DNA from: Lachnospiraceae bacterium UBA3863
Lineage (GTDB): Bacteria > Bacillota > Clostridia > Lachnospirales > Lachnospiraceae
DNA length: 25,244 bases
Assembly: GCA_002392385.1 (NCBI GenBank)
Contig: DGGX01000117.1
Span: 1 to 25,244, forward strand
Direction of reading: 5' to 3'
Shown: one piece after another, positions 6,093-24,733 of the stretch
How the letters are laid out: the number at the start of each line of letters is the position of its first letter
Numbering within the stretch: the stretch's first letter is position 1
Notes under the pieces: model-generated
What the model saw: the letters and a program-made list of their open reading frames with translations, nothing else
Database searches by the model: none
Told to the model about the DNA's origin: nothing
Made by a program: the position numbers and the translations under genes

Positions 6093-8306
6093 TTACTCCA
6101 GATCCTCCAGAGATACACCGGTGAAGATTCCCCGGTCATCCTTCTTCTCCTCGCCCGCCGGCGTCTCCTCCGCGGGTGCTTCTGCAGGTTCTTCCTCCGC
6201 AGGCGCTTCTGCGGGCTCCTCAGCGGTTTTTTCATCCGCAGGTGCTTCCGCGGTTTTTTCCTCTGCGGGTGCCTCGGCGGCCTTTTCTTCCGCGGGTGTC
6301 TCCGCGGGCAGTGCTGCCTGCGGCTCCGCGTTCTTGTCCTGCACGGCGGCCGTCTTCTCAGGCTCCTCACCCCGGATCTCGCGGAAGAGCTTCATGAACT
6401 CCTTGCCCGTGATAGTCTCCTGCTGGATCAGCACCCCGGCAATGCGGTCCAGAGCCTCCATGTTCTCGCTCAGGATATCTTTGGCCTCTTTATAGCAGCC
6501 CTCCAGGATCTGGCGGACCTCCTCGTCCACGGCCGCGGCAGTGACATCGGCGCAGTTGAGGACTACCCTTCCCTCCAGATACTGGCTCTCCACCGTGGCC
6601 AGTCCCATCAGGCCGAAATGCTCGCTCATGCCGTACTGGGTGACCATGTTGCGGGCAATGGCGGTCGCCCTCTCGATATCGTTGGATGCGCCGGTGGTCA
6701 CCGTGTCAAACTTCAGTTCCTCCGCGGCGCGGCCGCCCAGGAGTCCTACGATCATGGCATGCAGCTCCGCCTTGGAATTGAGATACTTCTCCTCCTCAGG
6801 CACCTGCATGACATAGCCGAGGGCGCCCATGGTCCTGGGCACGATGGTGATCTTCTGGACCGGCTCGGAATCCTTCTGTACGGCGCTGATCAGGGCGTGT
6901 CCCACCTCGTGGTAGGAGACGATCCTGCGCTCCTCCTGGTTCATGACACGGTCCTTTTTCTCCTTGCCTACGAGGACCTGCTCCACCGCTTCGAAGAGGT
7001 CCTTCTGGTTGACGAACTGCCGGCGGTTCTTGACCGCGTTGATGGCAGCCTCGTTGATCATATTGGCCAGGTCTGAGCCCACGGCGCCGCTGGTGGCCAG
7101 CGCGATCTCCTCCAGATCCACGGTCTCGTCCATCTTGACGTCCTTGGCGTGGACCTTGAGGATGGCGATACGGCCCTTGAGATCCGGCCGCTCCACGATG
7201 ATCCGTCTGTCAAAACGTCCGGGTCTCAGCAGAGCCTTGTCCAGGATCTCCGGGCGGTTGGTCGCCCCGATGATCAGGATGCCCTTGGTGGCCTCGAAGC
7301 CGTCCATCTCGGACAGGAGCTGATTCAGCGTCTGCTCCCGCTCCTCGTTGCCGCCGTAGCGGGAATCGCGGCTGCGGCCGATGGCATCGATCTCGTCGAT
7401 GAAAATAATGCAGGGGGCGTTCTTGTTGGCTTCCCGGAAGAGGTCTCTCACACGGGAGGCGCCGACGCCCACATAGAGTTCAATAAAGTCTGAGCCCGTC
7501 AGGGAGAAGAAGGGCACATGCGCCTCGCCGGCCACAGCCTTGGCCAGGAGGGTCTTGCCGGTGCCGGGAGGGCCTACCAGCAGCGCGCCTTTGGGAAGAC
7601 GTGCGCCGATACTGGCGTACCGGGCCGGATTGTGCAGGAAATCCACCACCTCCTGCAGGGACTCTTTGGCCTCGTCCTCGCCGGCCACGTCCTGGAAGGT
7701 CACGCCGGTCTCCTTCTGGACATATTCCTTGGCCGTGCTCTTGCCCACCCCCATGATGCCGCCTCCGCGGCCCATGCGGCGCATGATGAATCCGAAGAAG
7801 ACCCAGACCAGGACCAGAGGCAGGACATAGGACAGCAGGATATTCAGCACCATGCCGGAGCTGTCGGGGATATAGCCCTTCACAGTGACGCCGTAATCCA
7901 GCATCCTCTTCGTGAGCTCCGTGACCTCCTCCGCCATGCCGGTGTACATCTCCGTGTCGGAGTCCTTGACCTTGATCAGCAGACGGTCGGCCCGGATATC
8001 GACCTCCTCGACCTTGCCGTCCTCACACATCTGCAGGAACTCATTATAGGTAACTTCACTGCCCGCCGAGTCCCCGGACCGCATGAAATAACTGATCACC
8101 GAAAGCATCAGGACAGACGCCAGCAGCATGATCAGCAGACTCTGCCGCGGCCTTCCGCCGCTGCCGCTGCCGTCTCCTCTGCCGCCGCGATCTCCCCTGT
8201 CCTTATTATCGTCATCACCGGATCCCAGTCCCAGATCATCCAGCGAGAACAGCCGCAGACCCTTCCGCGGATCCTTCTTTTCTTTATTTCCGAATATAGT
8301 ACGCAA
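6093..8306 (-). CDS. ftsH: ATP-dependent zinc metalloprotease FtsH
   Basis: FtsH is a membrane-bound hexameric AAA+ protease that degrades misfolded membrane proteins and regulators. The 737-residue product has an Asp/Gly-rich cytoplasmic leader (about 25-52), membrane helices at about 56-74 and 153-175 around the extracytoplasmic domain, Walker A GPPGTGKT (245-252), Walker [12 protein letters not shown], the second region of homology ([20 protein letters not shown]) and the zinc motif HEVGH (466-470), where HEAGH is usual. From about residue 650 it carries an 80-residue Ala/Pro/Glu tail of [13 protein letters not shown] repeats, ending in SLEDLE. The start is TTG, supported by GGAGG five bases upstream (8312-8316). 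It is the first gene of the operon, and its stop abuts the uvrC start. Confidence 0.96.
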
Positions 8307-8368: not shown

Positions 8369-8392
8369 CATTTTTCCAAGCCCGCACAGGGG

Positions 8393-8451
8393 CTCACACA
8401 GGGGACGGTTCTCTGTGTGAGGTCCCGCACAGGGGACGGTTCTCTGTGCGG
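8393..8451 (+). repeat. REP-like palindrome pair (left)
   Basis: Two tandem palindromes lie at 8393-8421 and 8425-8451. Both have the core CACAGGGGACGGTTCTCTGTG; their outer arms differ (CTCACA/TGTGAG versus CCGCACA/TGTGCGG) but remain self-complementary. Folded, each gives a hairpin with two internal G-U pairs and a CGG loop. A broken half copy precedes them at 8382-8392. They resemble extragenic palindromes spread by REP-associated tyrosine transposases; no such transposase is in the window. Confidence 0.85.
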
Positions 8452-8477
8452 ACGCAGATAATTACGTACACACACGT

Positions 8478-8712
8478 AAGGATACAGGGTCCACAAGCAC
8501 CGAATGAAGAAGCATAATATACCAGGATCGCAGGGCGGCCCCTGCCAGCCAATGTCCCAACTCGGCCGCCGCTCTGAAGACCAGCGTCCTCAGACAGGAG
8601 GACAACGGAGGCGCTGCGCGGATGCAGCGCCTCCGAGCTGTCAGGGACCTTCCTGCGATCAGGTATATTTAAATGCTTCTTCATCAAAGGTGCTTGTGGG
8701 CCCTGTATCCTT
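8478..8712 (-). ncRNA. Candidate structured RNA element A
   Basis: A 235-base element is closed by a long interrupted stem: 8478-8535 pairs with 8653-8712 in blocks of 12, 11, 12, 7 and 8 bp. Inside is a 12-bp hairpin (8606-8617 with 8624-8635) with a 6-base loop. Read on the minus strand, the 3' side of that hairpin carries a core ending in GGCCGAGTTGGGA (8555-8567), shared with element B. The stems differ in sequence from element B but pair in the same places, which favours RNA structure over a transposon end. No credible reading frame, promoter or U-tract terminator is visible. The minus strand is assigned from the shared core; the transcribed strand is not proven. Confidence 0.6.
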
Positions 8713-8740
8713 GCCGAGTGTGCGAACTTCTGCGGCGCCC

Positions 8741-8856
8741 GCGCACAGAGAGCGGTCCACTGTCCGGCAACGACGGGGGCATGGCACGGAGGACGGTCCT
8801 CTGCCCGGTGTGCCATACATAAAGGGGCACGCTGGGAGACGGTTCTCTGTGTGAGG
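8741..8856. repeat. Degenerate REP-like copies between elements A and B
   Basis: Three eroded relatives of the palindrome lie at 8741-8766 (reverse orientation), 8783-8814 and 8831-8856 (forward). The middle one still folds through GGCAC/GTGTGCC. They fill most of the 159 bases between the two structured elements. Confidence 0.6.
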
Positions 8857-8871
8857 TCACCACTGCGTGCA

Positions 8872-9121
8872 CGAACGGGCATCCCGTGTCCGCGAGAGAT
8901 ACTTTTGAACGAGCGGCATGATACACAAGACCTGTGCAGAGCAGCTGCCGGGTCAGCCGCCGCAGTTCGGGCTGCGGCGGCTGTTGATCTCCGTGTCTGA
9001 GGCCACCGGCCAAAGGGGCGGGGGCCGAGTTGGGATCATTGCCCGGCAGATGCTCTGCACAGGTCCATGTGTATCACCGCGAAGTGATTCGTATCTCTCA
9101 CGGATATGGGATGACCGTTCG
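8872..9121 (+). ncRNA. Candidate structured RNA element B
   Basis: A 250-base element is closed by a long stem: 8872-8952 pairs with 9041-9121, including CGAACGG, CATCCC, GAGAGATAC, GATACACA, ACCTGTGCAGAGCA and CTGCCGGG with their partners. A perfect 12-bp hairpin (8954-8965 with 8972-8983) has a 6-base TTCGGG loop. Its 3' side contains GTGTCTGAGG and GGCCGAGTTGGGA (9023-9035), both also in element A in the same order. A further helix, TGATC with GATCA, corresponds to TGTCC with GGACA in element A. It does not match any RNA family I can name. Two G-U pairs in the basal stem slightly favour the plus strand as the transcript. Confidence 0.6.
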
Positions 9122-9142
9122 TATAAATAGCAGCGCGTCGCC

Positions 9143-9165
9143 GCACAGAGAACCGTCCCCTGTGA
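9143..9165 (-). repeat. REP-like palindrome, reversed copy
   Basis: GCACAGAGAACCGTCCCCTG and the following TGAG form the reverse complement of the left-hand REP-like unit. It lies 21 bases after element B. Confidence 0.8.
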
Positions 9166-9219
9166 GAGAAGTGATCCGTGGTTCGAGCGCCTACAGCGTG
9201 TCTTTTCATATGATGGCAG

Positions 9220-9252
9220 GCCTCACACAGAGAACCGTCCCCTGTGAGAGGC
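9220..9252 (-). repeat. REP-like palindrome, reversed copy with long arms
   Basis: The reverse-oriented unit is extended by self-complementary GGCCTCACA and TGTGAGAGGCC arms. Partial duplications of its right arm follow (CCTGTGAGAGGCCCCTGTGA) before the promoter of the regulator gene. Confidence 0.8.
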
Positions 9253-9345: not shown

Positions 9346-10041
9346 ATGCTTTCGGTTGCAATCGTGGAAGATGACAGGGAATTTGCCCGCAGGATCGCGG
9401 AGTATCTGGCGCGGTATGAGAAGGAGAAGGGGACGGATATTCGTGTCCGTTATTTTCAGGACGGGGAGGATATCGTGGAGGAGTATGCGCCGGAGTATGA
9501 TGTCCTGCTCATGGATATTCAGATGGAGTTCATGAGCGGGGTGGACGCGGCGCGGAGGATCCGGGAGAAGGATCCGGAGGTGCTGATCCTCTTTATTACA
9601 AACGCGGCGCAGTTCGCGATCGAGGGGTATGAGGTGCGGGCCTTCGACTATGTGCTCAAGCCGGTCACCTATGAGACCTTCTGCGCGAAGATGGACCGGG
9701 CGCTGGCGCATATGCGGCGGGAGAAGGAGGAGGCCCTGCTCCTGCAGACGGCCAGCGGGGCTGTGAAGGTGCCTGTGAGGCAGATCCTTTATGCGGAGAG
9801 TCAGGGGCACCGGATGTATGTCTGCACGCGGCAGGGGACGGTGGAGACCCATATGCGGATGAACGATCTCGAGCAGCAGCTCCTGCCGCATGATTTCTTC
9901 CGGTGTCACAAAGGCTTCCTTGTCAATATGGCCGCCGTGGACCGTCTGGAGGAGAACGACTGTCTGATCGGAAGCCGCCGGATCCCGGTGAGCCGGAGAA
10001 AAAGGCAGGAATTCATGGATCAACTGACGAGGGTTCTCTGA
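9346..10041 (+). CDS. LytTR-family response regulator
   Basis: This 231-residue protein has an N-terminal receiver domain (about 1-120) with the acidic pair Glu8/Asp9, phospho-acceptor Asp57 (LLMDIQM), Thr85 and Lys105 (YVLKPV). A C-terminal LytTR DNA-binding domain follows (about 130-231, with the typical FFRCHKGFLVN segment). Such regulators (AgrA, VirR, LytR types) act as dimers on paired direct repeats, often for cell-surface or peptide-signal genes. The ATG follows GGGGTGAT. It is the first gene of a two-gene operon; the kinase starts one base after its stop. Targets are unknown; the GH3 gene immediately downstream is a candidate only by position. Confidence 0.92.
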   Translation: MLSVAIVEDDREFARRIAEYLARYEKEKGTDIRVRYFQDGEDIVEEYAPEYDVLLMDIQMEFMSGVDAARRIREKDPEVLILFITNAAQFAIEGYEVRAFDYVLKPVTYETFCAKMDRALAHMRREKEEALLLQTASGAVKVPVRQILYAESQGHRMYVCTRQGTVETHMRMNDLEQQLLPHDFFRCHKGFLVNMAAVDRLEENDCLIGSRRIPVSRRKRQEFMDQLTRVL

Positions 10042-14976: not shown

Positions 14977-15004
14977 CAGCTGTGCACATTGATCTGACAC
15001 GATG

Positions 15005-15055
15005 AAAGGTGCCGCCGTAATCCCAGGATTCCGGCGGCACCTTTTATATTTTTTC
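15005..15055 (+). terminator. Intrinsic terminator after the GH3 operon
   Basis: AAAGGTGCCGCCG (15005-15017) pairs with CGGCGGCACCTTT (15032-15044), followed by TATATTTTTT. It lies 28 bases after the membrane-protein stop and only about 15 bases before the esterase ribosome site. The sequence is nearly repeated at 16158-16207. Confidence 0.88.
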
Positions 15056-15082
15056 TCTTATTTCCTTCAAAAGGAGGCCCTC

Positions 15083-16072
15083 ATGAAAGAAGCAAAGCAG
15101 CGGCGCATCCTCCCCGCAGTGATCCTGCCGGTCCTGCTGATCCTCCTCTTCCTCGGTATTCTCTTCCATCGGAGCATCTCTCTGCTCATCGACAACCTCA
15201 CCGTCGGCAAGCTTCCGATGGATACTTTGGAGGAATGGGACCGCGGCACCTCTCTCAAGGGAATCGCCTACGCAGACGCGTCGCCGGCCCAGTATCTGGA
15301 CCTGTATATCCCGGCCGACACGGAACATCCCCGGCTGCTGGTCCTGATCCACGGCGGCGGATTCCTCTTCGGCGATTCCGACACGCGGCAGGTCCGTTGG
15401 ATGTACCGCTATTTCCGCGACCACGGCTATGCCGTCGCCTCGGTCAACTACCGGCTGGCGGAGGAGGCGCCCTACCCGGCCGCTCTCGAGGACTGCCGGT
15501 CAGCGCTCCGCTTCCTGCGGGAGAACGCGGACACCTACGGCTACAGCGCGGACCGCATCGCCCTCTTCGGAGAATCCGCCGGCGGCTACCTGGCCACTAT
15601 GTGCGCCGTGGCCGGTGAGGAGCAGATCGCCGTCCTGATCGACTACTATCCCTACATCGAACCGACCATGCTGCGGCAGGATCTCCGGGACATGGGCTTT
15701 CCCTACCCCTTCTACCTGCTGGCGAACAACTGGCTGATCGGCTCCACAGACGGCTTCGAGGACTTCGATTCCTGCTGGCACCGCAGGAATTTCAGCGAGA
15801 TGACCGAAGAAGAGAGGGCGGAAGCCAATCCGCTCTCCTATATCTCCGCTTCATCTGAAAATCTGCAGGAGCTCTCTGTCTACCTGATCCATGGGGATGC
15901 GGATATCACAGTCCCCTACGCCTCCTCCGTGCGCCTGTTTGAGGCTCTCTCCGACGTGCTCCCCGCGTCCCGTCTCACCTTCCGCACCGAACCCGGCATG
16001 GGCCACGCAAGTGATCCTCTCTACCGGGAGGAGATTTTGGAAGAGATCGACGCATTCATGAAGGCACATTGA
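15083..16072 (+). CDS. Membrane-anchored alpha/beta-hydrolase, esterase/lipase type
   Basis: The 329-residue product is an alpha/beta-hydrolase of the hormone-sensitive-lipase or acetyl-esterase kind. It shows the oxyanion motif HGGGF (90-94), nucleophile elbow GESAGG with Ser165, probable acid Asp274 in HGDADITVP, and His308 in GMGH. One hydrophobic helix (about 10-28) and no cleavage site suggest an N-terminal membrane anchor with the enzyme outside. The start at 15083 is set by AAAGGAGG five bases upstream; an ATG at 15002 in the same frame lies in the terminator hairpin and lacks such a site. No separate promoter is visible, so expression may come from read-through. Removal of acetyl or other acyl groups from plant glycans would fit the context, but the substrate is not determined. 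Confidence 0.88.
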   Translation: MKEAKQRRILPAVILPVLLILLFLGILFHRSISLLIDNLTVGKLPMDTLEEWDRGTSLKGIAYADASPAQYLDLYIPADTEHPRLLVLIHGGGFLFGDSDTRQVRWMYRYFRDHGYAVASVNYRLAEEAPYPAALEDCRSALRFLRENADTYGYSADRIALFGESAGGYLATMCAVAGEEQIAVLIDYYPYIEPTMLRQDLRDMGFPYPFYLLANNWLIGSTDGFEDFDSCWHRRNFSEMTEEERAEANPLSYISASSENLQELSVYLIHGDADITVPYASSVRLFEALSDVLPASRLTFRTEPGMGHASDPLYREEILEEIDAFMKAH

Positions 16073-16079
16073 CGGCAGG

Positions 16080-16144
16080 CTCACACAGGGGACGGTTCTC
16101 TGTGTGAGATGGGCTCTCACAGGGGACGGTTCTCTGTGTGAGCC
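16080..16144 (+). repeat. REP-like palindrome pair (right)
   Basis: Two tandem units at 16080-16108 and 16111-16144 match the pair at 8393-8451 in core and orientation; the 29 bases 16080-16108 equal 8393-8421. The outer arms of the second unit (GGGCTC and GAGCCC) are again self-complementary. They sit between convergent genes. Confidence 0.85.
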
Positions 16145-16225: not shown

Positions 16226-19200
16226 TTACGGTTCTGAAGGTGCCTTTTCTTCCGTTGTCGTTTCGGAAGCAGGTTCCTTCTCAGGCTCTTTGGCGGGTTT
16301 CTTTGTTTCCGCCGGCTTCGCTTCCTCAGTCACGGCAGGCTCCTCTGCCGGGGCTTCCGTCGGAGCGGCCGCGGTTGTCTCTGCAGGCGTCTCGCCGGCT
16401 TCCGCAGGCACGTCCGCAGGTGTCTCGGAGGTCTCTTCTCCGGTTTCCGCAGGTGCGCCTGCGGTTGTCTCAACGGCTGCCTCCTCAGATGTGGGCTCTG
16501 TCTCGATTTCCGTAGTTTCTTCGGTTACCGCGGCTCTCCCTGCCTCTGCAGGCGCAGTCACATCGCTGATGTTGACGGTGAGTCTGCCGCCGTCATAGCT
16601 GTCATTGCCTTCCGGGCTGACAACGAACAGGAGAATGTCTCCCGCCTTGACCTCGAAGGTCTCGTCAAAGGTCTCCTTCTTCTCCGCGGAGAAATTGCCG
16701 GTCGTGCCGATCCACTTTTTCTCCTTGCCGTTCAGGAAGATCCGCATGCAGGTGCCGTCAGCGGAGCTGTCGTCGCTGTTCGCGAACTTCGTGTAGTCGC
16801 CCTTGACCTGGATCGTGCCGTCCCTGGCCACGACCCACTTGTAGGCTGCGCTCTTGCCGCTGCCGGGTTCGACGAAGTCGGCCTTAAGCTCGGGCTTGCC
16901 GCCGTCAAAGTAGCGGTCGTTGTCCTTGTCGTAGGGCAGTTTGGAGAAGTTCTTGCCGTTCCAGTCGCTGGAGCCGTAGTACCAGCCGTCTGTACCGTGC
17001 TTGCCGAAGCTGGTCTTCAGGGTGGTGTCGTTGGTCCTGTCAGGATCAGGCGTCACCTCGCTGTAGGCATCCTGCGAAGGCTCCTCGGGCTCCTCAGGCT
17101 CCTCGGCGGTCTTGTCGCTGATGGTTACTTTCAGGCGGCCGCCGTCCCAACTGTCGTTGCCCTCGGGATTGACGGCAAAGATCAGGATATCGCCGGCCTT
17201 GACTTCGTACTCCTCGTCGAAGGTCACAGTGCGCTCATCAGAGAAGTTGCCCTGGATATCGCCGCCCATCCACTTCTTCTCGGTACCGTTCAGGAAGATA
17301 CGGACAGTCGTGCCGTCGGCGGAAGCGTCGTCGCTGTTGGCGAACTTGGTATATTCGCCCTTGACGCTGATCGTGCCGTCCTTGGCGACGACCCACTTAT
17401 AAGCCGCGTTCATGCCGTTGCCGGGTTCCACGAAGTCTGCCTTGAGTTCAGGCTTGCCGTCCTTGTAATAGCGTCCCGCTTCCTTGTCGTAGGGGAGCTT
17501 GGCAAAATTCTTGCTGTCCCATTCGCAGGTACCATAGTACCAGCCGTCTGTACCATGCTGACCGAAGGCTTCGGCCAGAACAGTGTTGTTGGTGCGGTTC
17601 GGATCAGGCTCGACCTCTTCGTAGCCGTCCTCGCCGGAGCCGGCCTTGTCACTGATGGTGACAGCCAGACGCCCGCCGTCGCTGCTGTCGTTGCCCTCGG
17701 GATTGACGGCAAAGATCAGTACGTCACCCTTCTTGACGTCGTAGTTCTCGTCAAAGGTCACGTTCTGGTCCTCGGCAAAGCTGCCGATGGTGCCCAGCCA
17801 CTTCTTCTCCTCCCCGTTGAGGAAGATACGGACACAGGTGCCGTCAGCGCCTTCATCCTCGCTGTTGGCGAACTTGGTGTAGTCGCCCTTGACGTTGATG
17901 GTACCGTCCTGGGCCACAACCCACTTGTAGGCGGCGTTCCTGCCCTGTCCGGGCTCGACATAATCTGCCTTGAGTTCGGGCTTGCCGTCATTGTAGTAGC
18001 GGTCGTTGTCCTCGTCGTAGGTCAGCTTGGAGAAATTCTGGCTGTCCCAGTCGCACATGCCGTAGTACCAGCCGTTGCTGCCCTGTTTGCCGAAATCATC
18101 GGCCAGGACGGCGTTGTTGGTACGGTCGGGATCGTCAGGCTCATCCGGATCGTCGGGCTCATCGGGCTCGTCGCTTCCGGAAACCTTGAATCTGGCATTG
18201 AGACGGCCGGCGTCCCAGGCGTTGTTGCCGTCAGGAACGATCTGGAAGCTGAAGATATCGCCCGCCTTGACATTCAGCTCCTTGAAGTCGAAGTCGAGGA
18301 CGTTGTCATTGCCGTCGCCCTGTTTGACAGCGACCTTCTTGTTCAGGATCTGCTTGTTGTTCTGGCTGATGATCAGCGTGATGCCGTCCGGCCAGGAAGG
18401 ATTGCTGTCGTTCTGTCCGTATTTGACATAGCTGCCGGTGAGATCGACCTGCCCGTCGTCCTTGACGACCCACTTGTAGATGGGCTGCATCTTGGCACCG
18501 GGGTGGACATAGTCCTTCTTCATCTCCAGGCCGCTGTCCTTCTGGGAGAGCCATGCATCGCCGTTTCTCTTGGTGAGAAGCTTGGCGTTTCCGAGGGATG
18601 TGCCCTCCATGAACCACCAGCCGTCATTGCCCTGATCGACAGAAGAGAGCTTGCCGAGTTCGGTGTTGTTGTCGTTGCCGGCGGTGAGGTTCACTTCTTC
18701 AGAATCCTCGATCACCACGGAGAGTCTGCCGCCGTCCCAGGCGTTATTGCCGTCGCGGCAGATCTGGAAGCTCAGCTTGTCACCGCGCTTGACGTCCAGT
18801 TTATTGAATTCGAAGTCGAGGACGCTGTCGTTGCCGTCGCCCCGTTTGACCTTCACCTTCTTGGTCAGAAGGACCTTGTTGTTCTTGTAGACTTTGAGTG
18901 TGATGCCGTCCGGGAAATTCGGGTTGGAATCCTCCTGGCCGAACTTGACGTAGGAACCGGTGATATCTACCTTGCCGGTCTCGCCGCAGACGAACTGGTA
19001 GATAGGATCCTGCGTGGCGCCGGTATGGACAAAGTCCTTCTTCATCTCCAGGCCGTCGGTCCTTCTGGAGTTCCATCCCTCGCCGTCAGGCGTTCTCTTC
19101 GTAAGTACCTTGGCGTCGGAGGGGGAGGAGCCTTCCAGGAACCACCAGCCGTCAGTGCCCTGCTCTGTGGAATCCAGGTCATTCAGGGAGGTGTTGTTGT

Positions 19201-21553
19201 CGTTGCTGCCTGCCTTCACCTTGGGCGTCTTGTTCGCGTCCTCGATGACGAACATGTACTTGCCGCCGTCGTAAGCGTTGTTGGGACCCGGATCCACGAC
19301 CATGGTGATGGCGTCGCCCTTCTTCACGCTGACATCATTGACAGACAGGGACTTGGTCACTTCTTTATCGGTCCTGGGGGCAAAATACTGCTTCTTGAGG
19401 ACCTTGCCGTTCTTCATCAGATAGACGGTGACGCCGTCGGGGAAGCTCGGATTGGCGTCCATGTTCAGGAGCTTGGTGTATTCCAGGTCGATGTTGATCT
19501 TGCCGTTCTCGGCGGCGATCCACTTGACGTTGGCGGACTTGCCCTTGTTTCCGGGCATGATGTAATCCTTCTTGATCTCCACGCCGTCGCTGGTGTAGTA
19601 CTTGTCACCGCCGGACATGCGCTCCACGTTCACGGCAAAGGAGGGATCGTGATAATAACCGAACTGATAATACCACCCGTTCTTGCCCTGCTTGCCGAAA
19701 TCATCCTTGGTGGAGGCGAAATTGGTCCGTTTGCCGGAGGGCTTGACGCTCTTCTCGTTCTTGCCCACCAGTCCGCTTGTGCTGTGGATGGCGAATTCAT
19801 ACTTGCCGCCGTCATAGGCTGTGTTGTCCAGGCCGTTGATGACCATGGTGATGTACTGGCCTTTTCTGACCTTGACGCCGCTGACATCCAGCCTCCTGGT
19901 CACTTCGCGGTCCACTTCCGGCACGAAGGTCTCCTGGCGCAGGAGGGTGCCGTCGAGATAGATGGAGACGCGGGTGCCGTCCGGCCAGGCGGGGTTGGCG
20001 TCCTCATTCCTGGTCTTGGTATAGGAAGCGAGCACGTTCACGGTGCCGTTCTGCGCCACCTTCCATTTGATGATGGCAGACCGGTCGTGCGGGCCGGGGT
20101 TGACATAATCGCGCTTGATCTCCAGAAAATCATTGCTGAAGTATCTGTCTTCACCCTTGTCATAAGGGGCCGCGTTATATGCGTTGAAGGGGTCGTCACC
20201 GTAGCCCCACTGGAAGATGAAGCCGTTGCTGCCCTGGGGACCGAAATCAACGCCCACATCCGCCCAGTTCTGGCGGGTCTCGGGGGTATTGATCTTCACG
20301 GCGCTCTCGTCCGACAGCCCGTTGACATCGAAGATCGTGATATCGAAGGCGCCGCCGTCATAGGAGGAGTTTCCCTCGGCGTCCACCATGAAGTAGAGAC
20401 GGTCTTCCGGTGTCACGTACAGCTTGGGAATACGTGTACGGATCTTGTTCTCCCCTTCGTCCGGGGCGTCCACGTGTTCCTCGTACAGGAGCTCGTCGTT
20501 CTTAAAGACCTTGACTTTGACGCCGTCCGGGAAGTCCGGGTTGCCGTCATGCTGTTCGAATTTGGAGTAGCGCACGCGGAGATCCACATTGCCGCTGACA
20601 GCCGGCGTCCAGGTCAGGATCGCGTTGTCGTTGATGGCGGGGTGGATGAATCCGCTGCTGATGGTGAGGTTGGGGGAAGTGCAGTTGATGTACTCGCCCT
20701 CATTCTCGTGGGAGACCAGTGCGGCGTCCTCGGGAGATGTGCCGAACATATACTCCCAGCCATTGTTCCCCTGCACGCCGAAGTCCTCGACGCTGTTGGC
20801 ATTGTTGTCGACGCGGAAGATGTCCTCCGCGCTCACAGGCGGCTCCGCGTTTACGTCGGAGATGGCCGCGTAGAGAGTGCCGCCGTCGAAAGCATTGTTC
20901 GCGCGGGGATCCACGACAAAATACAGGCTCTCGTGCCTCTTCACGCTGAGTCCGTCCACACGGATCTGCGCCAGTGTCTCCTCCGTGGTGCTGATATCCA
21001 CGTTTTCGAGCTTCAGAAGCTCTGTACCCTTGTAGACCAGGAGCTGTACGCCGTCCGGATACCCCGGATTCGCGTCTCCGTTCACGCTCTTGACATAGGT
21101 CACGACGACATTGACGTCGCCGTCCTCCGCCGCCCGCCACTCAAGGATCGGAGAGGCTGCCTCGGAAGTATGCAGGAACGTCTTCTTGACCTCCAGCCCG
21201 TTAGCGCCGGACTGGTAGTATTTCTCTCCGTCAAAAGAAGACAGTCTCCTGGACCGCTCCGGGTGGTCGGATCTCCCGTACCGGTAGAACCATCCGCCTT
21301 TCCCCTGTTCGCCGAAATCCACCACATTGAAGGCATTGTTGGTGCGGCCGGGAACATCCTCAAAGGGCGGTTCGTCGATCTCCTCCACTTCAAAATCTGA
21401 AGGCCAGGTCCCCGGGATCTGCGGAATATTCTTCATAGCCGCGCTGCCGCCTGCGCATCCGGCCAGAATTCCGATAGCTGCCAGTACAGCAGCGCCCGCA
21501 GCGACTGCTGCCCGGTTCGCACTGAGAAATCTGCGCATTCTGTCTAAAAACAT
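16226..21553 (-). CDS. Giant lipoprotein with nine beta-rich modules
   Basis: I do not recognise this 1775-residue protein as a named family. It starts with a lipoprotein signal (hydrophobic 15-29, lipobox LAGC, Cys33). Nine related modules of about 165 residues follow. A typical module has a DFG.QG..GW.Y start, a KKDYV..G strand, W.A...G.I.V..Y.K, a PDG.V..YLNG segment, V..GD...F.V.P and a closing N..DGG.....I.D. This resembles jelly-roll carbohydrate-binding or surface-adhesion repeats; I see no catalytic motif. Modules 7-9 are nearly alike, 5 and 6 form a pair, and 1-4 are more diverged. A 110-residue Ala/Thr/Glu/Pro tail ends the protein, without LPXTG. The ATG follows GGGAGG, 48 bases after the GH32-like gene, so it is probably co-transcribed and binds or displays the same polysaccharide. 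Confidence 0.85.
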   Translation of the reverse strand: MFLDRMRRFLSANRAAVAAGAAVLAAIGILAGCAGGSAAMKNIPQIPGTWPSDFEVEEIDEPPFEDVPGRTNNAFNVVDFGEQGKGGWFYRYGRSDHPERSRRLSSFDGEKYYQSGANGLEVKKTFLHTSEAASPILEWRAAEDGDVNVVVTYVKSVNGDANPGYPDGVQLLVYKGTELLKLENVDISTTEETLAQIRVDGLSVKRHESLYFVVDPRANNAFDGGTLYAAISDVNAEPPVSAEDIFRVDNNANSVEDFGVQGNNGWEYMFGTSPEDAALVSHENEGEYINCTSPNLTISSGFIHPAINDNAILTWTPAVSGNVDLRVRYSKFEQHDGNPDFPDGVKVKVFKNDELLYEEHVDAPDEGENKIRTRIPKLYVTPEDRLYFMVDAEGNSSYDGGAFDITIFDVNGLSDESAVKINTPETRQNWADVGVDFGPQGSNGFIFQWGYGDDPFNAYNAAPYDKGEDRYFSNDFLEIKRDYVNPGPHDRSAIIKWKVAQNGTVNVLASYTKTRNEDANPAWPDGTRVSIYLDGTLLRQETFVPEVDREVTRRLDVSGVKVRKGQYITMVINGLDNTAYDGGKYEFAIHSTSGLVGKNEKSVKPSGKRTNFASTKDDFGKQGKNGWYYQFGYYHDPSFAVNVERMSGGDKYYTSDGVEIKKDYIMPGNKGKSANVKWIAAENGKINIDLEYTKLLNMDANPSFPDGVTVYLMKNGKVLKKQYFAPRTDKEVTKSLSVNDVSVKKGDAITMVVDPGPNNAYDGGKYMFVIEDANKTPKVKAGSNDNNTSLNDLDSTEQGTDGWWFLEGSSPSDAKVLTKRTPDGEGWNSRRTDGLEMKKDFVHTGATQDPIYQFVCGETGKVDITGSYVKFGQEDSNPNFPDGITLKVYKNNKVLLTKKVKVKRGDGNDSVLDFEFNKLDVKRGDKLSFQICRDGNNAWDGGRLSVVIEDSEEVNLTAGNDNNTELGKLSSVDQGNDGWWFMEGTSLGNAKLLTKRNGDAWLSQKDSGLEMKKDYVHPGAKMQPIYKWVVKDDGQVDLTGSYVKYGQNDSNPSWPDGITLIISQNNKQILNKKVAVKQGDGNDNVLDFDFKELNVKAGDIFSFQIVPDGNNAWDAGRLNARFKVSGSDEPDEPDDPDEPDDPDRTNNAVLADDFGKQGSNGWYYGMCDWDSQNFSKLTYDEDNDRYYNDGKPELKADYVEPGQGRNAAYKWVVAQDGTINVKGDYTKFANSEDEGADGTCVRIFLNGEEKKWLGTIGSFAEDQNVTFDENYDVKKGDVLIFAVNPEGNDSSDGGRLAVTISDKAGSGEDGYEEVEPDPNRTNNTVLAEAFGQHGTDGWYYGTCEWDSKNFAKLPYDKEAGRYYKDGKPELKADFVEPGNGMNAAYKWVVAKDGTISVKGEYTKFANSDDASADGTTVRIFLNGTEKKWMGGDIQGNFSDERTVTFDEEYEVKAGDILIFAVNPEGNDSWDGGRLKVTISDKTAEEPEEPEEPSQDAYSEVTPDPDRTNDTTLKTSFGKHGTDGWYYGSSDWNGKNFSKLPYDKDNDRYFDGGKPELKADFVEPGSGKSAAYKWVVARDGTIQVKGDYTKFANSDDSSADGTCMRIFLNGKEKKWIGTTGNFSAEKKETFDETFEVKAGDILLFVVSPEGNDSYDGGRLTVNISDVTAPAEAGRAAVTEETTEIETEPTSEEAAVETTAGAPAETGEETSETPADVPAEAGETPAETTAAAPTEAPAEEPAVTEEAKPAETKKPAKEPEKEPASETTTEEKAPSEP
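16559..21346 (-). repeat. Nine tandem protein modules in the giant lipoprotein
   Basis: Module positions in coding order are: 1, 20849-21346; 2, 20321-20812; 3, 19775-20275; 4, 19235-19732; 5, 18701-19204; 6, 18179-18679; 7, 17645-18124; 8, 17111-17599; 9, 16559-17038. Linkers are short. Those around modules 7-9 are acidic and Pro-rich (EPDEPDDPD, EEPEEPEEPS, EVTPDPD). Modules 1-6 carry a D.NP..PDG segment. In modules 7-9 this becomes ADGT..RIFLNG followed by KKW, so the array falls into at least three subfamilies. Confidence 0.85.
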
Positions 21554-21601: not shown

Positions 21602-23116
21602 TCACTGATACACCGTTACATTCTCCATGGTTACGCCGCTGCGGATGGCGAACAGCTGCCAATCAGTCCCCTGCGACCGGTACATTCTGGCAGTGAGCGC
21701 GATCTCGTCATCTACATACAGACTTGCAACACCATCACACAGCAGCAGCGTCATATGAATGCTGTCGCGGCCGGCAAGATCCATCTCCATGAAGGACTGG
21801 GCGTCCTCCTCAAAGAGTTTCGTTGTGTTGTAGAATTCAACTCGTCCTTCTTTTACGTTGAACACGTACGACAATGCGCCGACGTTCTCACTGTTTGGCG
21901 CGAAGGAAATGCCGAACATGTCTTCCTTCCCGTACCCGGTGAGATCCGCCTCGATCCGGATCCCGGTGTCATAGGGCTCGAACTGTACCAGTTCGTAGTC
22001 CTTCCCGCTGAATTGTACCTTGTTCTTTCCGTCGAAGCTGACGGTCTCCGTGATGGTCAGAGGCGACAGGGCCGCTTCATGAGAGAGGCGTGCTTTCACC
22101 TTCTCATTCACCACAGGGACCAGTGATCCGTCTTCTTTCTGCGCGAGCTGGTGCACGACCATATTGCCGGCCCAGTCATAATCGTTCAAGTCGTCGTGCC
22201 CGATCTTGGTTCCGTTCCATCCCACCACATACAGGTGCTCTCCGTCCGTCTCCAGGCGGCCGGCGTAGAAACCGTTTCCGTCGATCGTATCCTTTTCTGG
22301 GCGTGTGAAGGGCCCGTGTATGTTATCGCTGACCCGGAAATGCACCACGCGGTCCGGCCACTGGTCGGAGAAGGCGAGATACCACTTGCCGCCGAACTGC
22401 AGCAGGGAAGGGCATTCCATGTTGGTGCCGTATCCCATATCGTCCTCGAAGAAGACGCCTTCGTCCTTCCACTTGTGCAGGTCCGTCGACGTATATCTCG
22501 CGATCACGCCGTTCTTGTCCTTGCGCGTGACCACCAGCATCCAGTAGCACTGCTCCTCCGGCACATAGAAGACGTAGGGGTCACGGAAATCATTGGTGGA
22601 GTAGTTCTCGTCCGTAAAGGTATCCTCCGGGATCTTGGTGAAGTGCTCGAGATCCGTCCCCTCCGCGTGCATGATCGCTTCCGCCGGCTCGTAATAATCA
22701 TTGTGCCCGGTAAAGAAGGCGTGGTACTTGCCTTCCTGATCCTTCATGACACAGCCCGTGCCCAGGGCATTGTCCTGTTCCGTCGCGGATTCCGCGTATG
22801 GGAGAACGATCCCTTTGTTTTCGAAGGTGCAGTAATCCTCTGTCTGCAGAAGGGCCCACGGATGATAGCCGGTCTTACCGTCCCTCTGGTCCAGCAGGTA
22901 GTAGATATTCATGCGGCCGTCTTCGAAATACGGCATCGTGTCACCCACATAGCCGTCTAATGTCATGGGAAACAGCGTGGCTGCTTCCTGCTCCTGTGCC
23001 GCCGTGTCCGTTTTCTGATCTGTTGTCCCCCCGGCAGCGTTCCCGCCCTGTCCGCAGGCACTCAGAAACAACAGCAGCCCTGCTGTCATCAGTGCGATGG
23101 CCTTCTTACTATTCAT
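21602..23116 (-). CDS. GH32-like lipoprotein (fructan-active family)
   Basis: The 504-residue product has a lipoprotein signal ending in the lipobox LSAC (Cys21) and a low-complexity linker. A five-bladed GH32-type propeller follows, then a C-terminal beta-sandwich (about 350-504). The stabiliser motif FRDP (Asp179) and acid/base motif ECPSL (Glu234) are intact. The nucleophile region reads VGDTMPYF (Asp59) rather than the usual WMNDPNG. Such VGD.MP forms occur among GH32 and clan-J relatives, so I expect activity on sucrose, inulin or levan at the cell surface, but specificity is open. I prefer the ATG at 23116, with AGAGAGG five bases upstream, over the in-frame GTG two codons earlier. It lies 30 bases after the cytoplasmic GH32 gene and heads towards the modular lipoprotein, in one operon. 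Confidence 0.85.
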   Translation of the reverse strand: MNSKKAIALMTAGLLLFLSACGQGGNAAGGTTDQKTDTAAQEQEAATLFPMTLDGYVGDTMPYFEDGRMNIYYLLDQRDGKTGYHPWALLQTEDYCTFENKGIVLPYAESATEQDNALGTGCVMKDQEGKYHAFFTGHNDYYEPAEAIMHAEGTDLEHFTKIPEDTFTDENYSTNDFRDPYVFYVPEEQCYWMLVVTRKDKNGVIARYTSTDLHKWKDEGVFFEDDMGYGTNMECPSLLQFGGKWYLAFSDQWPDRVVHFRVSDNIHGPFTRPEKDTIDGNGFYAGRLETDGEHLYVVGWNGTKIGHDDLNDYDWAGNMVVHQLAQKEDGSLVPVVNEKVKARLSHEAALSPLTITETVSFDGKNKVQFSGKDYELVQFEPYDTGIRIEADLTGYGKEDMFGISFAPNSENVGALSYVFNVKEGRVEFYNTTKLFEEDAQSFMEMDLAGRDSIHMTLLLCDGVASLYVDDEIALTARMYRSQGTDWQLFAIRSGVTMENVTVYQ

Positions 23117-23146
23117 AGACACCTCTCTGAAGCGCGATGCGCGAAA

Positions 23147-24643
23147 TCAAATAATCAGGTCATATTTCACGACATCCATGATCACGTCCCCGTCGGCGCG
23201 GAAGGAGATCTGTTCTGCCGACAGGTCTGTGTAAAGCGCAGCGCTCATGACCTTGCGTCCGCCGTCTATGAACACCTCGCAGCTATTGCGGTCCAGGATG
23301 ACGCGGAAGCGCAGCTCCTCCTGCGCGTTCTCCACGTAGCACCTGCGCTGGTGCACGATCGCGCGCCGGGAACCGGAGAACTTCCGGTCGATCTTGAGGG
23401 TCGACTCCGAAGGACGGAAGCGCAGGGAGGTATAAGTCTCCCCGTCCTCGGCAAACCGCAGGACGAATTTCTGGTAGCTTTTCTCAGGATCCGCCGGGCG
23501 GACCCGGATCTCCATATCCACGACTCTTCCGCGGACACCGTCCAGGTACATGCGCTCCTTCGTGAGGTGCACGTTCCGGTGCTCCACGCGGTTCCTTCTG
23601 CACAGATCCAGTTCCCGGATGGGCTGCTGATACAGGCGGCCATCCCGGACAGAGAGCTCCCTGGGGGTACTCATCTGGCCCGCCCAGACTGCCTCGGGAT
23701 CGCGGATCGCACAGGCATCCCAGTTCTGCATCCAGCCGATCATGACTCTGCGCCCGTCCGGCGTGAGGATGGTCTGCGGCGCATAGAAATCGATGCCGTA
23801 GTCGATCGCCTGGTCGTATTCCGGGCGGAAATCCGCCGTCTCCCGGTCATAATCGCCGATCAGGCAGAGCGTCCCGTTTCCGTTGTGATACTCGAATCCC
23901 TTCGGCTCCATATCCTGCGGACTTACGAGCAGCACCTGCTTCCCGTCCAGTCCGAAGAAGTCCGGGCACTCCCACATCCTGCCGAAACGGAGCCCGTTGG
24001 TGATCAGGACCTTCTCGAACTCCCAGTGAAAGCCGTCCCTGCTCCGGTAGAGCAGGATCCTGCTGTCCCCGCCGGCATCCGCGATGCGGCTTGAGACCAC
24101 GCAGCGGTACATCCCGTCAGGTTCCCGCCAGATCTTCGGATCCCGGAAGTCTCTGGGATCGCTGCCTTCGGGAAGCATGTTCTCCGAAATAACAGGGTTC
24201 GCCTCATATTTCTCATAATCTTCGCCGTCGCCGACCGCGACGCTCTGCGTCTGCAGGCTGCGCACGCGGCCGTCAGGCAGCTTGTGCATGATCACGGAGG
24301 TGTAGATCAGGAGATGTGTTCCATCCTCCAGTGTCACCGCGCTTCCGGAGAAGCAGCCATCCTGGTCATAGTACTCGTCCGGTGCCATGGCAGCCGGCAG
24401 ATACTCCCAGTGCAGCAGGTCCCTGCTGACGGCATGCCCCCAGTGCATCGGTCCCCAGATCGGGGTGTATGGATAGTACTGATAGAAAAGGTGATACTCT
24501 CCCCGGAACACACAGAACCCGTTCGGGTCATTCATCCAGCCGGTCCGCGGGGTCAGATGGAACAAGGGCCTCTGCTCCGGCAGGATCCGTTTGCCGTAGA
24601 TCTCCTCATAGCGTCGGGCTTCTCTCAATGCCTGACTTGACAT
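23147..24643 (-). CDS. Cytoplasmic GH32 beta-fructosidase / sucrose-6-phosphate hydrolase type
   Basis: This 498-residue enzyme hydrolyses beta-fructosidic bonds in sucrose, sucrose phosphate or imported fructo-oligosaccharides. The canonical GH32 motifs are present: WMNDPNG with nucleophile Asp39, FSGSAV (98-103), FRDPK with Asp168 and WECPD with Glu225. A C-terminal beta-sandwich (about 340-498) follows, with VFIDGG. There is no signal peptide, so it acts inside the cell. The start at 24643 is set by AAAGGAG; the open frame reaches 24727 but would run back through a terminator hairpin. A neighbouring ABC solute-binding protein, with no PTS gene visible, argues for unphosphorylated oligofructose as substrate rather than sucrose-6-phosphate. 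Only about 43 bases separate it from the upstream terminator, and I see no clear promoter there. Confidence 0.92.
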   Translation of the reverse strand: MSSQALREARRYEEIYGKRILPEQRPLFHLTPRTGWMNDPNGFCVFRGEYHLFYQYYPYTPIWGPMHWGHAVSRDLLHWEYLPAAMAPDEYYDQDGCFSGSAVTLEDGTHLLIYTSVIMHKLPDGRVRSLQTQSVAVGDGEDYEKYEANPVISENMLPEGSDPRDFRDPKIWREPDGMYRCVVSSRIADAGGDSRILLYRSRDGFHWEFEKVLITNGLRFGRMWECPDFFGLDGKQVLLVSPQDMEPKGFEYHNGNGTLCLIGDYDRETADFRPEYDQAIDYGIDFYAPQTILTPDGRRVMIGWMQNWDACAIRDPEAVWAGQMSTPRELSVRDGRLYQQPIRELDLCRRNRVEHRNVHLTKERMYLDGVRGRVVDMEIRVRPADPEKSYQKFVLRFAEDGETYTSLRFRPSESTLKIDRKFSGSRRAIVHQRRCYVENAQEELRFRVILDRNSCEVFIDGGRKVMSAALYTDLSAEQISFRADGDVIMDVVKYDLII

Positions 24644-24685
24644 GTCTGCTTCTCCTTTTAGTAAGTTTATTAACGTCAGATGGGT

Positions 24686-24733
24686 AATAAAAAACCTGCG
24701 CCGCGCTTCGGTTCCGGACCTCCGCACGGCGCA
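24686..24733 (-). terminator. Terminator between the solute-binding gene and GH32
   Basis: On the minus strand TGCGCCGTGC pairs with GCGCGGCGCA (24724-24733 with 24697-24706, one G-U pair), followed by GG and TTTTTTATT. The loop contains a smaller GGTCCGGAACC fold. It ends or attenuates transcription between the transporter and hydrolase genes. The 64 bases up to 24797 show nothing else. Confidence 0.85.

What the first reader, a model, noticed from the sequence alone, without database searches (positions are those of the whole stretch)
8478..9121. Two paralogous, covarying structured RNA-like elements in opposite orientation
Elements A (8478-8712, minus) and B (8872-9121, plus) share an asymmetric core: a 12-bp hairpin with 6-base loop, then TGTCTGAGG, then GGCCGAGTTGGGA followed by CATTG and GGCAG. 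Their long basal stems and the 12-bp hairpins have unrelated sequences in A and B yet pair perfectly or nearly so in each. A smaller helix also changes in step (TGTCC/GGACA versus TGATC/GATCA). Inverted ends of a transposon family would be the same in both copies; here pairing is conserved and sequence is not, as expected for RNA. I cannot match it to a named family. G-U pairs do not settle the strand, since B slightly favours the core strand and A its complement.
Basis: partly seen in the sequence, partly recalled or inferred. Interest (0 to 1): 0.88.

Follow-up and report, generated by a model that had tools for sequence, protein, structure and literature searches.

The report
Mobile giant hairpins with conserved tips
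Two large hairpin-forming sequences in a bacterial genome belong to a family of non-coding, apparently mobile repeats whose sequence changes freely while the folded shape and a small motif near its tip stay the same.

Summary
A (8468-8722, minus) and B (8870-9123, plus) are giant hairpins (shuffle z -15 and -16) with a shared three-way-junction core. Eighty-five aligned copies, A and B among them, keep 60 core pairs in 90.3% of cells; 58 of 60 pairs have two-sided changes. No Rfam family matches them at gathering score. Copies: 15 credible places in this genome, 26 of 61 genus genomes, its own included, few outside the genus, none but its own in 391 genomes of the class. The constant part is a tip motif, TGTYTGAG-hairpin-CGAGTT. 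The core strand folds better than its complement in 97 of 103 elements, so a folded single strand looks selected; in the window's own genome G-U counts stay near even. Promoter and terminator scans were negative; there were no transcript data. Best reading: non-autonomous mobile repeats recognised as folded strands, RNA or single-stranded DNA.

The parts
8468..8722 (-). Element A: giant imperfect hairpin; strong arms 8478-8501 / 8689-8712; core strand is minus
   Evidence: covariance-model match 8516-8669 minus, 128.5 bits
8516..8669 (-). Model-matched core of A: inner stem, P2 hairpin 8606-8635, P3 with tip motif TGTCTGAG (8589-8596) and CGAGTT (8559-8564), read on the minus strand
8870..9123 (+). 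Element B: giant imperfect hairpin; outer arms 8871-8902 / 9091-9122; core strand is plus
   Evidence: covariance-model match 8920-9075 plus, 161.4 bits
8920..9075 (+). Model-matched core of B: inner stem 8929-8952/9042-9065, P2 hairpin 8954-8983, P3 with tip motif TGTCTGAG (8994-9001) and CGAGTT (9026-9031)
8723..8869 (.). Spacer between the two outward-pointing elements; holds REP-like repeats (8778-8810, 8824-8856)
8793..8832 (+). 5' arm piece of a third element of the C181/C143 type
   Evidence: 38 of 40 identical to the C181 plus-strand element; alignment score 35 against a maximum of 14 in 100 shuffles of the piece with its surroundings
9168..9220 (+). 3' arm piece of the same third element; B and its REPs lie where that element's core would be
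   Evidence: 45 of 53 identical; score 33 against a shuffled maximum of 13
8390..8453 (-). Two REP-like repeats (GGGGACGGTTCTCTG on the plus strand) outside A
9137..9251 (+). Two REP-like repeats (CAGAGAACCGTCCCC) outside B
6093..8306 (-). Neighbouring gene: FtsH protease (AAA + peptidase M41), 5' end towards A
9346..10041 (+). Neighbouring gene: LytTR-type response regulator, 5' end towards B

Best explanation
A and B are two members of a family of dispersed, non-coding, non-autonomous mobile repeats found so far in one bacterial order (Lachnospiraceae by record titles; the order name Lachnospirales is recalled). Shown: each member is one giant hairpin (median 270 nt, 69 enclosing pairs) with a near-invariant tip motif, TGTYTGAG-[hairpin]-CGAGTT, in otherwise freely changing, covarying helices; distribution is patchy; two members often form one unit with core strands pointing outwards; such units occur as near-copies beside unrelated genes. 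Supported: the form under selection is the folded core strand. Inferred: the folded strand is itself the mobility signal, a trans-acting nuclease or transposase recognising the tip motif of each end on single-stranded DNA or on an RNA copy; units persist mainly between convergent genes, where they do least harm; in the window's genome and in G190, REP-like repeats linked to a Y1 (HUH) transposase gene have become attached to the units and may have helped them spread. The enzyme is not identified.
For: Covariation in 85 sequences: 90.3% of cells paired, 58 of 60 pairs with two-sided changes, covariation score 0.699 against 0.190 shuffled and at most 0.111 slid. Core strand favoured: lower energy in 97 of 103, 691 G-U pairs against 382 on the complement; aligner blind to G-U: GT 222, AC 142, GT the larger in 54 and the smaller in 23 of 103. 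Motif columns T97, G98, T99, A103, G135, A136, G137 invariant in 85 of 85. Mobility: a 720-nt unit 94.6% identical in G159 and G175 with unrelated neighbours, one of about 680 nt 89.4% identical at two places of G190; a site occupied in G472 and empty in G959 and G378; B lies between pieces of an older element. Two-element loci: 32 of 32 in minus-then-plus order, one more in G949 of another genus. Gaps that carry elements: 19 convergent, 14 tandem, 3 divergent, against 5, 116, 26 for the other 147 gaps of the same loci.
Against: No target-site duplication and no common terminal sequence in the units read; unit ends differ between genomes. No gene was called between the two elements of a pair in the loci, so no transposase of its own. 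Y1_Tnp is in 10 of 12 carriers tested but absent from G195 and G098, and present in 4 of 7 genomes in which no element was found. The GT excess is weak in G000 (32 to 28) and G190 (83 to 75). Two elements at orthologous places persist in sister species, so movement there is not frequent. A deletion in G959 and G378 could mimic the empty site. In the window about 195 nt of the third element are missing, so B did not simply insert there.
Confidence: 0.5

Rival explanations
1. The fold works as RNA: the elements are structured non-coding or 3'-untranslated RNAs (mRNA stabilisers, RNase III substrates or protein-binding sites) that happen to be spread by mobile DNA; the tip motif is a protein-binding bulge.
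For: Core-strand G-U excess; Y100 varies C or T (68 and 16 of 85) while its possible partner G135 never changes; 19 of 36 element-bearing gaps lie between convergent genes, regions likely transcribed but not translated.
Against: No promoter-like enrichment upstream of the core strand (mean 7.63 against 7.72 on the other side, 96 elements) and few T-runs at the stem base (7 and 5 of 107); no fixed relation to gene direction among the 7 single elements in tandem gaps (3 one way, 4 the other); flanking genes unrelated apart from three weak matches. G-T is also tolerated better than A-C in folded DNA (established knowledge).
Confidence: 0.27
2. They are REPIN- or BIME-like elements moved by REP-associated tyrosine transposases, the giant hairpin being an outsized REPIN.
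For: In G190 some unit ends coincide with inverted REP-like repeats; a REP lies on the 3' side of 11 of 15 elements in G000 and 26 of 34 in G190; a Y1_Tnp gene of G000 is flanked by the same repeats; 10 of 12 carriers have a Y1_Tnp match.
Against: The same REP flanks 0 of 58 elements in the other genomes of the set; G195 (16 elements, genome 84% complete) and G098 (4, 99% complete) have no Y1_Tnp match, and 4 of 7 genomes without detected elements have one. So the REP link looks local, not a property of the family.
Confidence: 0.13
3. The perfect pairing is a DNA by-product: quasi-palindromes are made perfect by template switching between arms during replication, with no selection on a folded strand.
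For: Arms are very long and DNA palindromes do undergo such correction (established knowledge); GT and AC mismatches are near equal in G000 and G190.
Against: It predicts strand symmetry, but the core strand is favoured in 97 of 103 elements and GT exceeds AC over all genomes; it does not explain an invariant tip motif within variable helices. Between the sister species G472 and G949 five pairs changed: none on both sides, 2 kept on one side, 3 broken (small numbers).
Confidence: 0.1

Closest known systems
REPINs / REP doublets and BIMEs (PMC3116915: abstract and outline seen; PMC3733652: passages and section 16 seen)
   Same: Dispersed extragenic palindromes, inverted dimers, predicted hairpins in ssDNA or mRNA, non-autonomous, variable spacers; in G000 and G190 physically joined to a REP that also flanks a Y1_Tnp gene in G000.
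   Different: Median element 270 nt, not a 20-40 bp REP; arms differ greatly between copies; a strand-specific tip motif is conserved; no such REP in the other genomes and no Y1_Tnp in two carriers.
TIRtrons: RAYT-like genes with long, sometimes self-complementary TIRs that share a GGGGWSAS motif (PMC3733652 section 16)
   Same: The REP beside these elements, GGGGACGGTTC, resembles that motif and flanks a Y1_Tnp gene in G000.
   Different: It is off by one base from GGGGWSAS, and the resemblance concerns the flanking REP, not the giant hairpin.
bcr1 repeats of the Bacillus cereus group (recalled; only a search listing seen)
   Same: Recalled as mobile repeats of about 155 bp with a conserved RNA-like fold.
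   Different: Other host, size and sequence as recalled; no comparison was run.
Large structured RNAs in Rfam such as ROOL, GOLLD, HEARO (names recalled)
   Same: Large covarying non-coding structures (recalled).
   Different: No Rfam 15 family matches the elements at gathering score; the best low-threshold match, plant MIR839 on A, has 50.5 bits (E 7.8e-9) against a cut-off of 200 and I read it as long-hairpin likeness.

Membership tests
Known Rfam RNA family | Covariance-model score at or above the family's gathering score | tested here: not met
   0 matches in the window and none on the elements of 14 other loci (one rRNA and two tRNA matches elsewhere in them)
REP / REPIN | Short (20-40 bp) palindrome with a conserved tag tetranucleotide as the repeated unit | tested here: not met
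   Median element 270 nt; helices vary between copies
REP / REPIN | Inverted doublet as the unit | tested here: met
   32 of 32 two-element loci minus-then-plus; 43 other loci of the set showed a single element
REP / REPIN | Co-occurring REP-associated Y1 transposase | tested here: inconclusive
   Y1_Tnp in 15 of 20 genomes: 10 of 12 carriers (not G195, G098), 4 of 7 without detected elements, and G946, not assessed for elements
MITE (DDE type) | Terminal inverted repeats with target-site duplication, no coding capacity | tested here: inconclusive
   Inverted ends in some units; no gene called between paired elements; no target-site duplication in the units read
Structured non-coding RNA | Covarying base pairs beyond shuffles and slid controls | tested here: met
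   the controls do not fully correct for relatedness
Structured non-coding RNA | Transcribed as RNA | not testable with these tools
   No transcript data; no promoter-like enrichment
IS200/IS605-type ssDNA ends | Y1 transposase cuts next to a single-strand hairpin | not testable with these tools
   Needs a biochemical assay
Integron attC sites | Integrase-recognised folded strand with extrahelical bases | not tested
   No integrase search was made

The most novel reading that the evidence does not exclude
A class of mobile element whose two ends are encoded as folds rather than as sequences: each end is a giant hairpin free to change its sequence by compensatory mutation, and an unknown enzyme (or the strand itself, as a ribozyme) recognises only a bulged tip motif on one folded strand, so that two unrelated-looking ends can be paired in one unit.
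Probability: 0.3. Interest if true: 0.85.

Novelty: new variant of a known kind. Interest (0 to 1): 0.62.

Why it matters
Covariation is usually taken as strong evidence of a functional RNA. Here it occurs in what looks like mobile DNA, with enough copies (106 of the 107 elements come from one genus) to test which strand and which motif matter. It offers a natural set for asking whether a mobile element can be recognised by shape, and it warns that a covarying structure found in metagenomes need not be a cellular RNA gene.

Tried and rejected
Known RNA family: rejected. Cis-regulation of particular genes: not supported, the nearest called genes are unrelated between loci apart from three weak matches (25-38% identity). 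3'-UTR element with fixed orientation to its gene: first suspected (the gene on the outer side faces the element in 46 of 63 cases), dropped because 7 single elements in tandem gaps split 3 to 4 and two-element units keep their order in tandem and divergent gaps too. Promoter or terminator function: no enrichment (promoter scan on 96 of 107 elements, those with enough flank). RAYT/Y1 as the general mover: not supported. Viral carriage: 0 exact pattern matches in viral contigs, which tests one exact pattern only. Kink-turn reading of the tip (tandem G-A pairs): considered from memory, not testable because the columns do not vary.

Dropped rows and limits. Of 145 matches I kept 107 (removed: matches on the complementary strand of the same element, and places seen through two loci). 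Searches use 103 of 107 (at least 45 enclosing pairs). One search was given 64 of the 77 sources, with a strict cut-off that leaves out complementary-strand matches. The C173 match (59.1 bits) was dropped: no giant stem, and it reads like a ribosomal protein gene (by eye). Element limits come from folds with flanks and can run into flanking REPs. Gene calls are my own codon-scored ORFs, not curated. Large genome searches scored 7 to 49 candidates per genome, so absence is weak evidence.

Literature: searches listed no paper whose title or abstract start describes this family in the open-access library; beyond listings I saw only passages and section 16 of PMC3733652 and abstract and outline of PMC3116915.

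Full report
What is there. Elements A and B are real and at the stated places. Each folds into one giant hairpin, far more stable than shuffled sequence (z -15.0 and -16.1). Inside, a long stem opens into a three-way junction: a variable 12-bp hairpin (P2) and a second arm (P3) whose tip carries TGTCTGAG, a variable hairpin, and CGAGTT. A and B share that core and little else. Both lie among REP-like repeats (CAGAGAACCGTCCCC and inverse) that occur 135 times with at most one mismatch in this genome, against 0 for the reversed control. B and its REPs sit between the arm pieces of a third element (8793-8832, 38 of 40 identical to a relative; 9168-9220, 45 of 53), where about 195 nt with that element's core are missing. 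The neighbours are ftsH and a LytTR response regulator, both pointing away.

The family. A covariance model from 11 copies finds 16 places in the window's genome, 15 of them credible (the sixteenth, in C173, lacks the stem); a 63-nt fragment at the end of contig 39 was seen only by DNA search. In the genus 26 of 61 genomes match, the window's own included; G190 has 47 matches counted, 44 of them listed, at 44 places. One-per-genus sampling of the family gave 2 of 150 genomes, the window's own and G089. A second model from 85 sequences gave 4 of 392 genomes in the order, again counting the window's own, and only its own in 391 of the class. A closer look at 8 genomes found 16 matches in G195, 6 in G472, 4 in G098, 1 each in G089 and G259, and none in G163, G191 and G208. 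Several far matches are weak by score (E 0.0002 to 0.007 in G098 and four in G472), but each one read carries the same tip motif inside a giant palindrome. In some of them P2 is missing, so the tip motif, not the three-way junction, is the constant part. An exact pattern found 39 stretches in named genomes: Lachnospiraceae metagenome-assembled genomes apart from one record titled Ruminococcaceae and one titled Clostridia, with rumen, omasum or duodenum in several titles (records of the window's own genome may be left out there). Viral contigs gave none. That the window's organism is a ruminant-gut Lachnospiraceae is inference from this.

Covariation. On 85 aligned copies the 60 core pairs are formed in 90.3% of cells, 58 pairs have changes on both sides, and the covariation score is 0.699 against 0.190 in shuffles and 0.08-0.11 with partners slid. 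The alignment was fitted to the model and copies are related, so the exact numbers lean upwards; alignment A1 of 11 copies, made by MAFFT without a structure, already gave 35 of 60 pairs with two-sided changes. The tip columns T97, G98, T99, A103, G135, A136 and G137 do not vary in 85 of 85, and Y100 is C in 68, T in 16, A in 1. In the 107 elements the whole motif is exact in 93 and within one mismatch in 100. A fixed motif held in helices that are free to change, provided they pair, means that what is recognised is most likely a folded single strand.

Which strand. The core strand has the lower energy in 97 of 103 elements and 691 G-U pairs against 382 on the complement. The model and the element limits were set on the core-strand fold, which favours it, so I repeated the count by aligning arms with a scheme blind to G-U: GT 222, AC 142 (Wilcoxon P 2e-5, elements not independent). 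The excess is carried by G195 (26 to 11) and the other genomes (81 to 28); G000 (32 to 28) and G190 (83 to 75) are near even.

Mobility. A 720-nt unit of two elements and spacer is 94.6% identical between G159 and G175, in opposite orientation and beside unrelated genes; another of about 680 nt is 89.4% identical at two places of G190; further units in G151, G161 and G173 (78-81%) and in G203 and G172 (87-89%, in two pieces) lie in different places. The two elements of G472 compared are at orthologous places in its sister G949; one of these sites lacks the element, and the short-repeat array beside it, in G959 and G378. No target-site duplication was seen, and unit ends differ between genomes.

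Arrangement. The 107 elements lie in 75 loci. In all 32 loci with two elements (12 genomes) the order is minus then plus, cores outward, with core-to-core gaps of 93 to 875 nt. Searches chose many of these loci because two matches were adjacent; no adjacent pair in another order is among the places listed, a capped list. A pair in G949, another genus, has the same order. The order holds whether neighbouring genes converge, run in tandem or diverge, so it belongs to the unit and not to gene direction. Element-bearing gaps are convergent far more often than the other gaps of the same loci (19 of 36 against 5 of 147). Searches for promoters at the 5' side and T-runs at the stem base found nothing above the control side.

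REPs and Y1 transposase. In G000 and G190 a REP lies on the 3' side of 37 of 49 elements and some units of G190 end in inverted REPs; in the other genomes of the set it is 0 of 58. G000 has a Y1_Tnp gene flanked by the same REPs, as in the REPtrons and TIRtrons of PMC3733652 (section 16). Y1_Tnp is found in 10 of 12 carriers tested, but not in G195 and G098, and in 4 of 7 genomes in which no element was found. I read the REP link as a local association that may have helped the elements multiply, not as their defining mover.

How it most likely works. Shown: fold conservation, near-invariant tip, near-copies at unrelated places, outward pairs. Moderately supported: selection acts on the folded core strand. 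Inferred: the fold is the element's own mobility signal, read on single-stranded DNA (for example lagging-strand template) or on an RNA copy, by an enzyme supplied in trans. The main rival is a function as RNA in transcribed regions; the data do not exclude it. A pure arm-correction artefact is disfavoured by the strand bias and the tip motif.

Verdict on novelty. It resembles REPINs, BIMEs and MITEs in dispersal, inverted pairing and lack of genes, but does not meet their sequence-based definitions; I call it a new variant of a known kind. The bolder reading, an element whose ends are defined by fold alone, is open.

Noticed in passing
L118:3140-3603 and other places in G190: A second repeat family of about 480 nt with ends CCAATGTCATTTA / TAAATGACATTGG sits next to a REP beside several element units; a 480-base query gave 36 matches, many partial, in G190.
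   Followed up: partly
L228, L231, L233, L235 (G472): Four P2-less elements lie in arrays of a short repeat that matches their outer arms; L228 is about 950 nt upstream of a 16S rRNA gene, and long flank similarity suggests that L233 and L235 lie at rRNA operons too.
   Followed up: partly
L278:7483-9908 (G949): An IS66-type insertion lies between the short-repeat array and an element that are adjacent in G472.
   Followed up: partly
L116:1468-2223 (G000 contig 166): Y1_Tnp gene flanked by the CAGAGAACCGTCCCC repeats on both sides: a likely REPtron or TIRtron of this genome.
   Followed up: partly
window 16088-16136: Two REP copies in the gap after the ORF at 15002-16072.
   Followed up: no
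window 16226-21553 minus: 1775-aa ORF with many similar repeats (by eye) and no Pfam match at E 1e-8, beside two genes with GH32 domains at 21602-24727.
   Followed up: no
G000 contigs 33, 39, 151, 242 and several G190 contigs: Many elements lie near contig ends, so assemblies probably break at them and copy numbers are likely underestimates.
   Followed up: no
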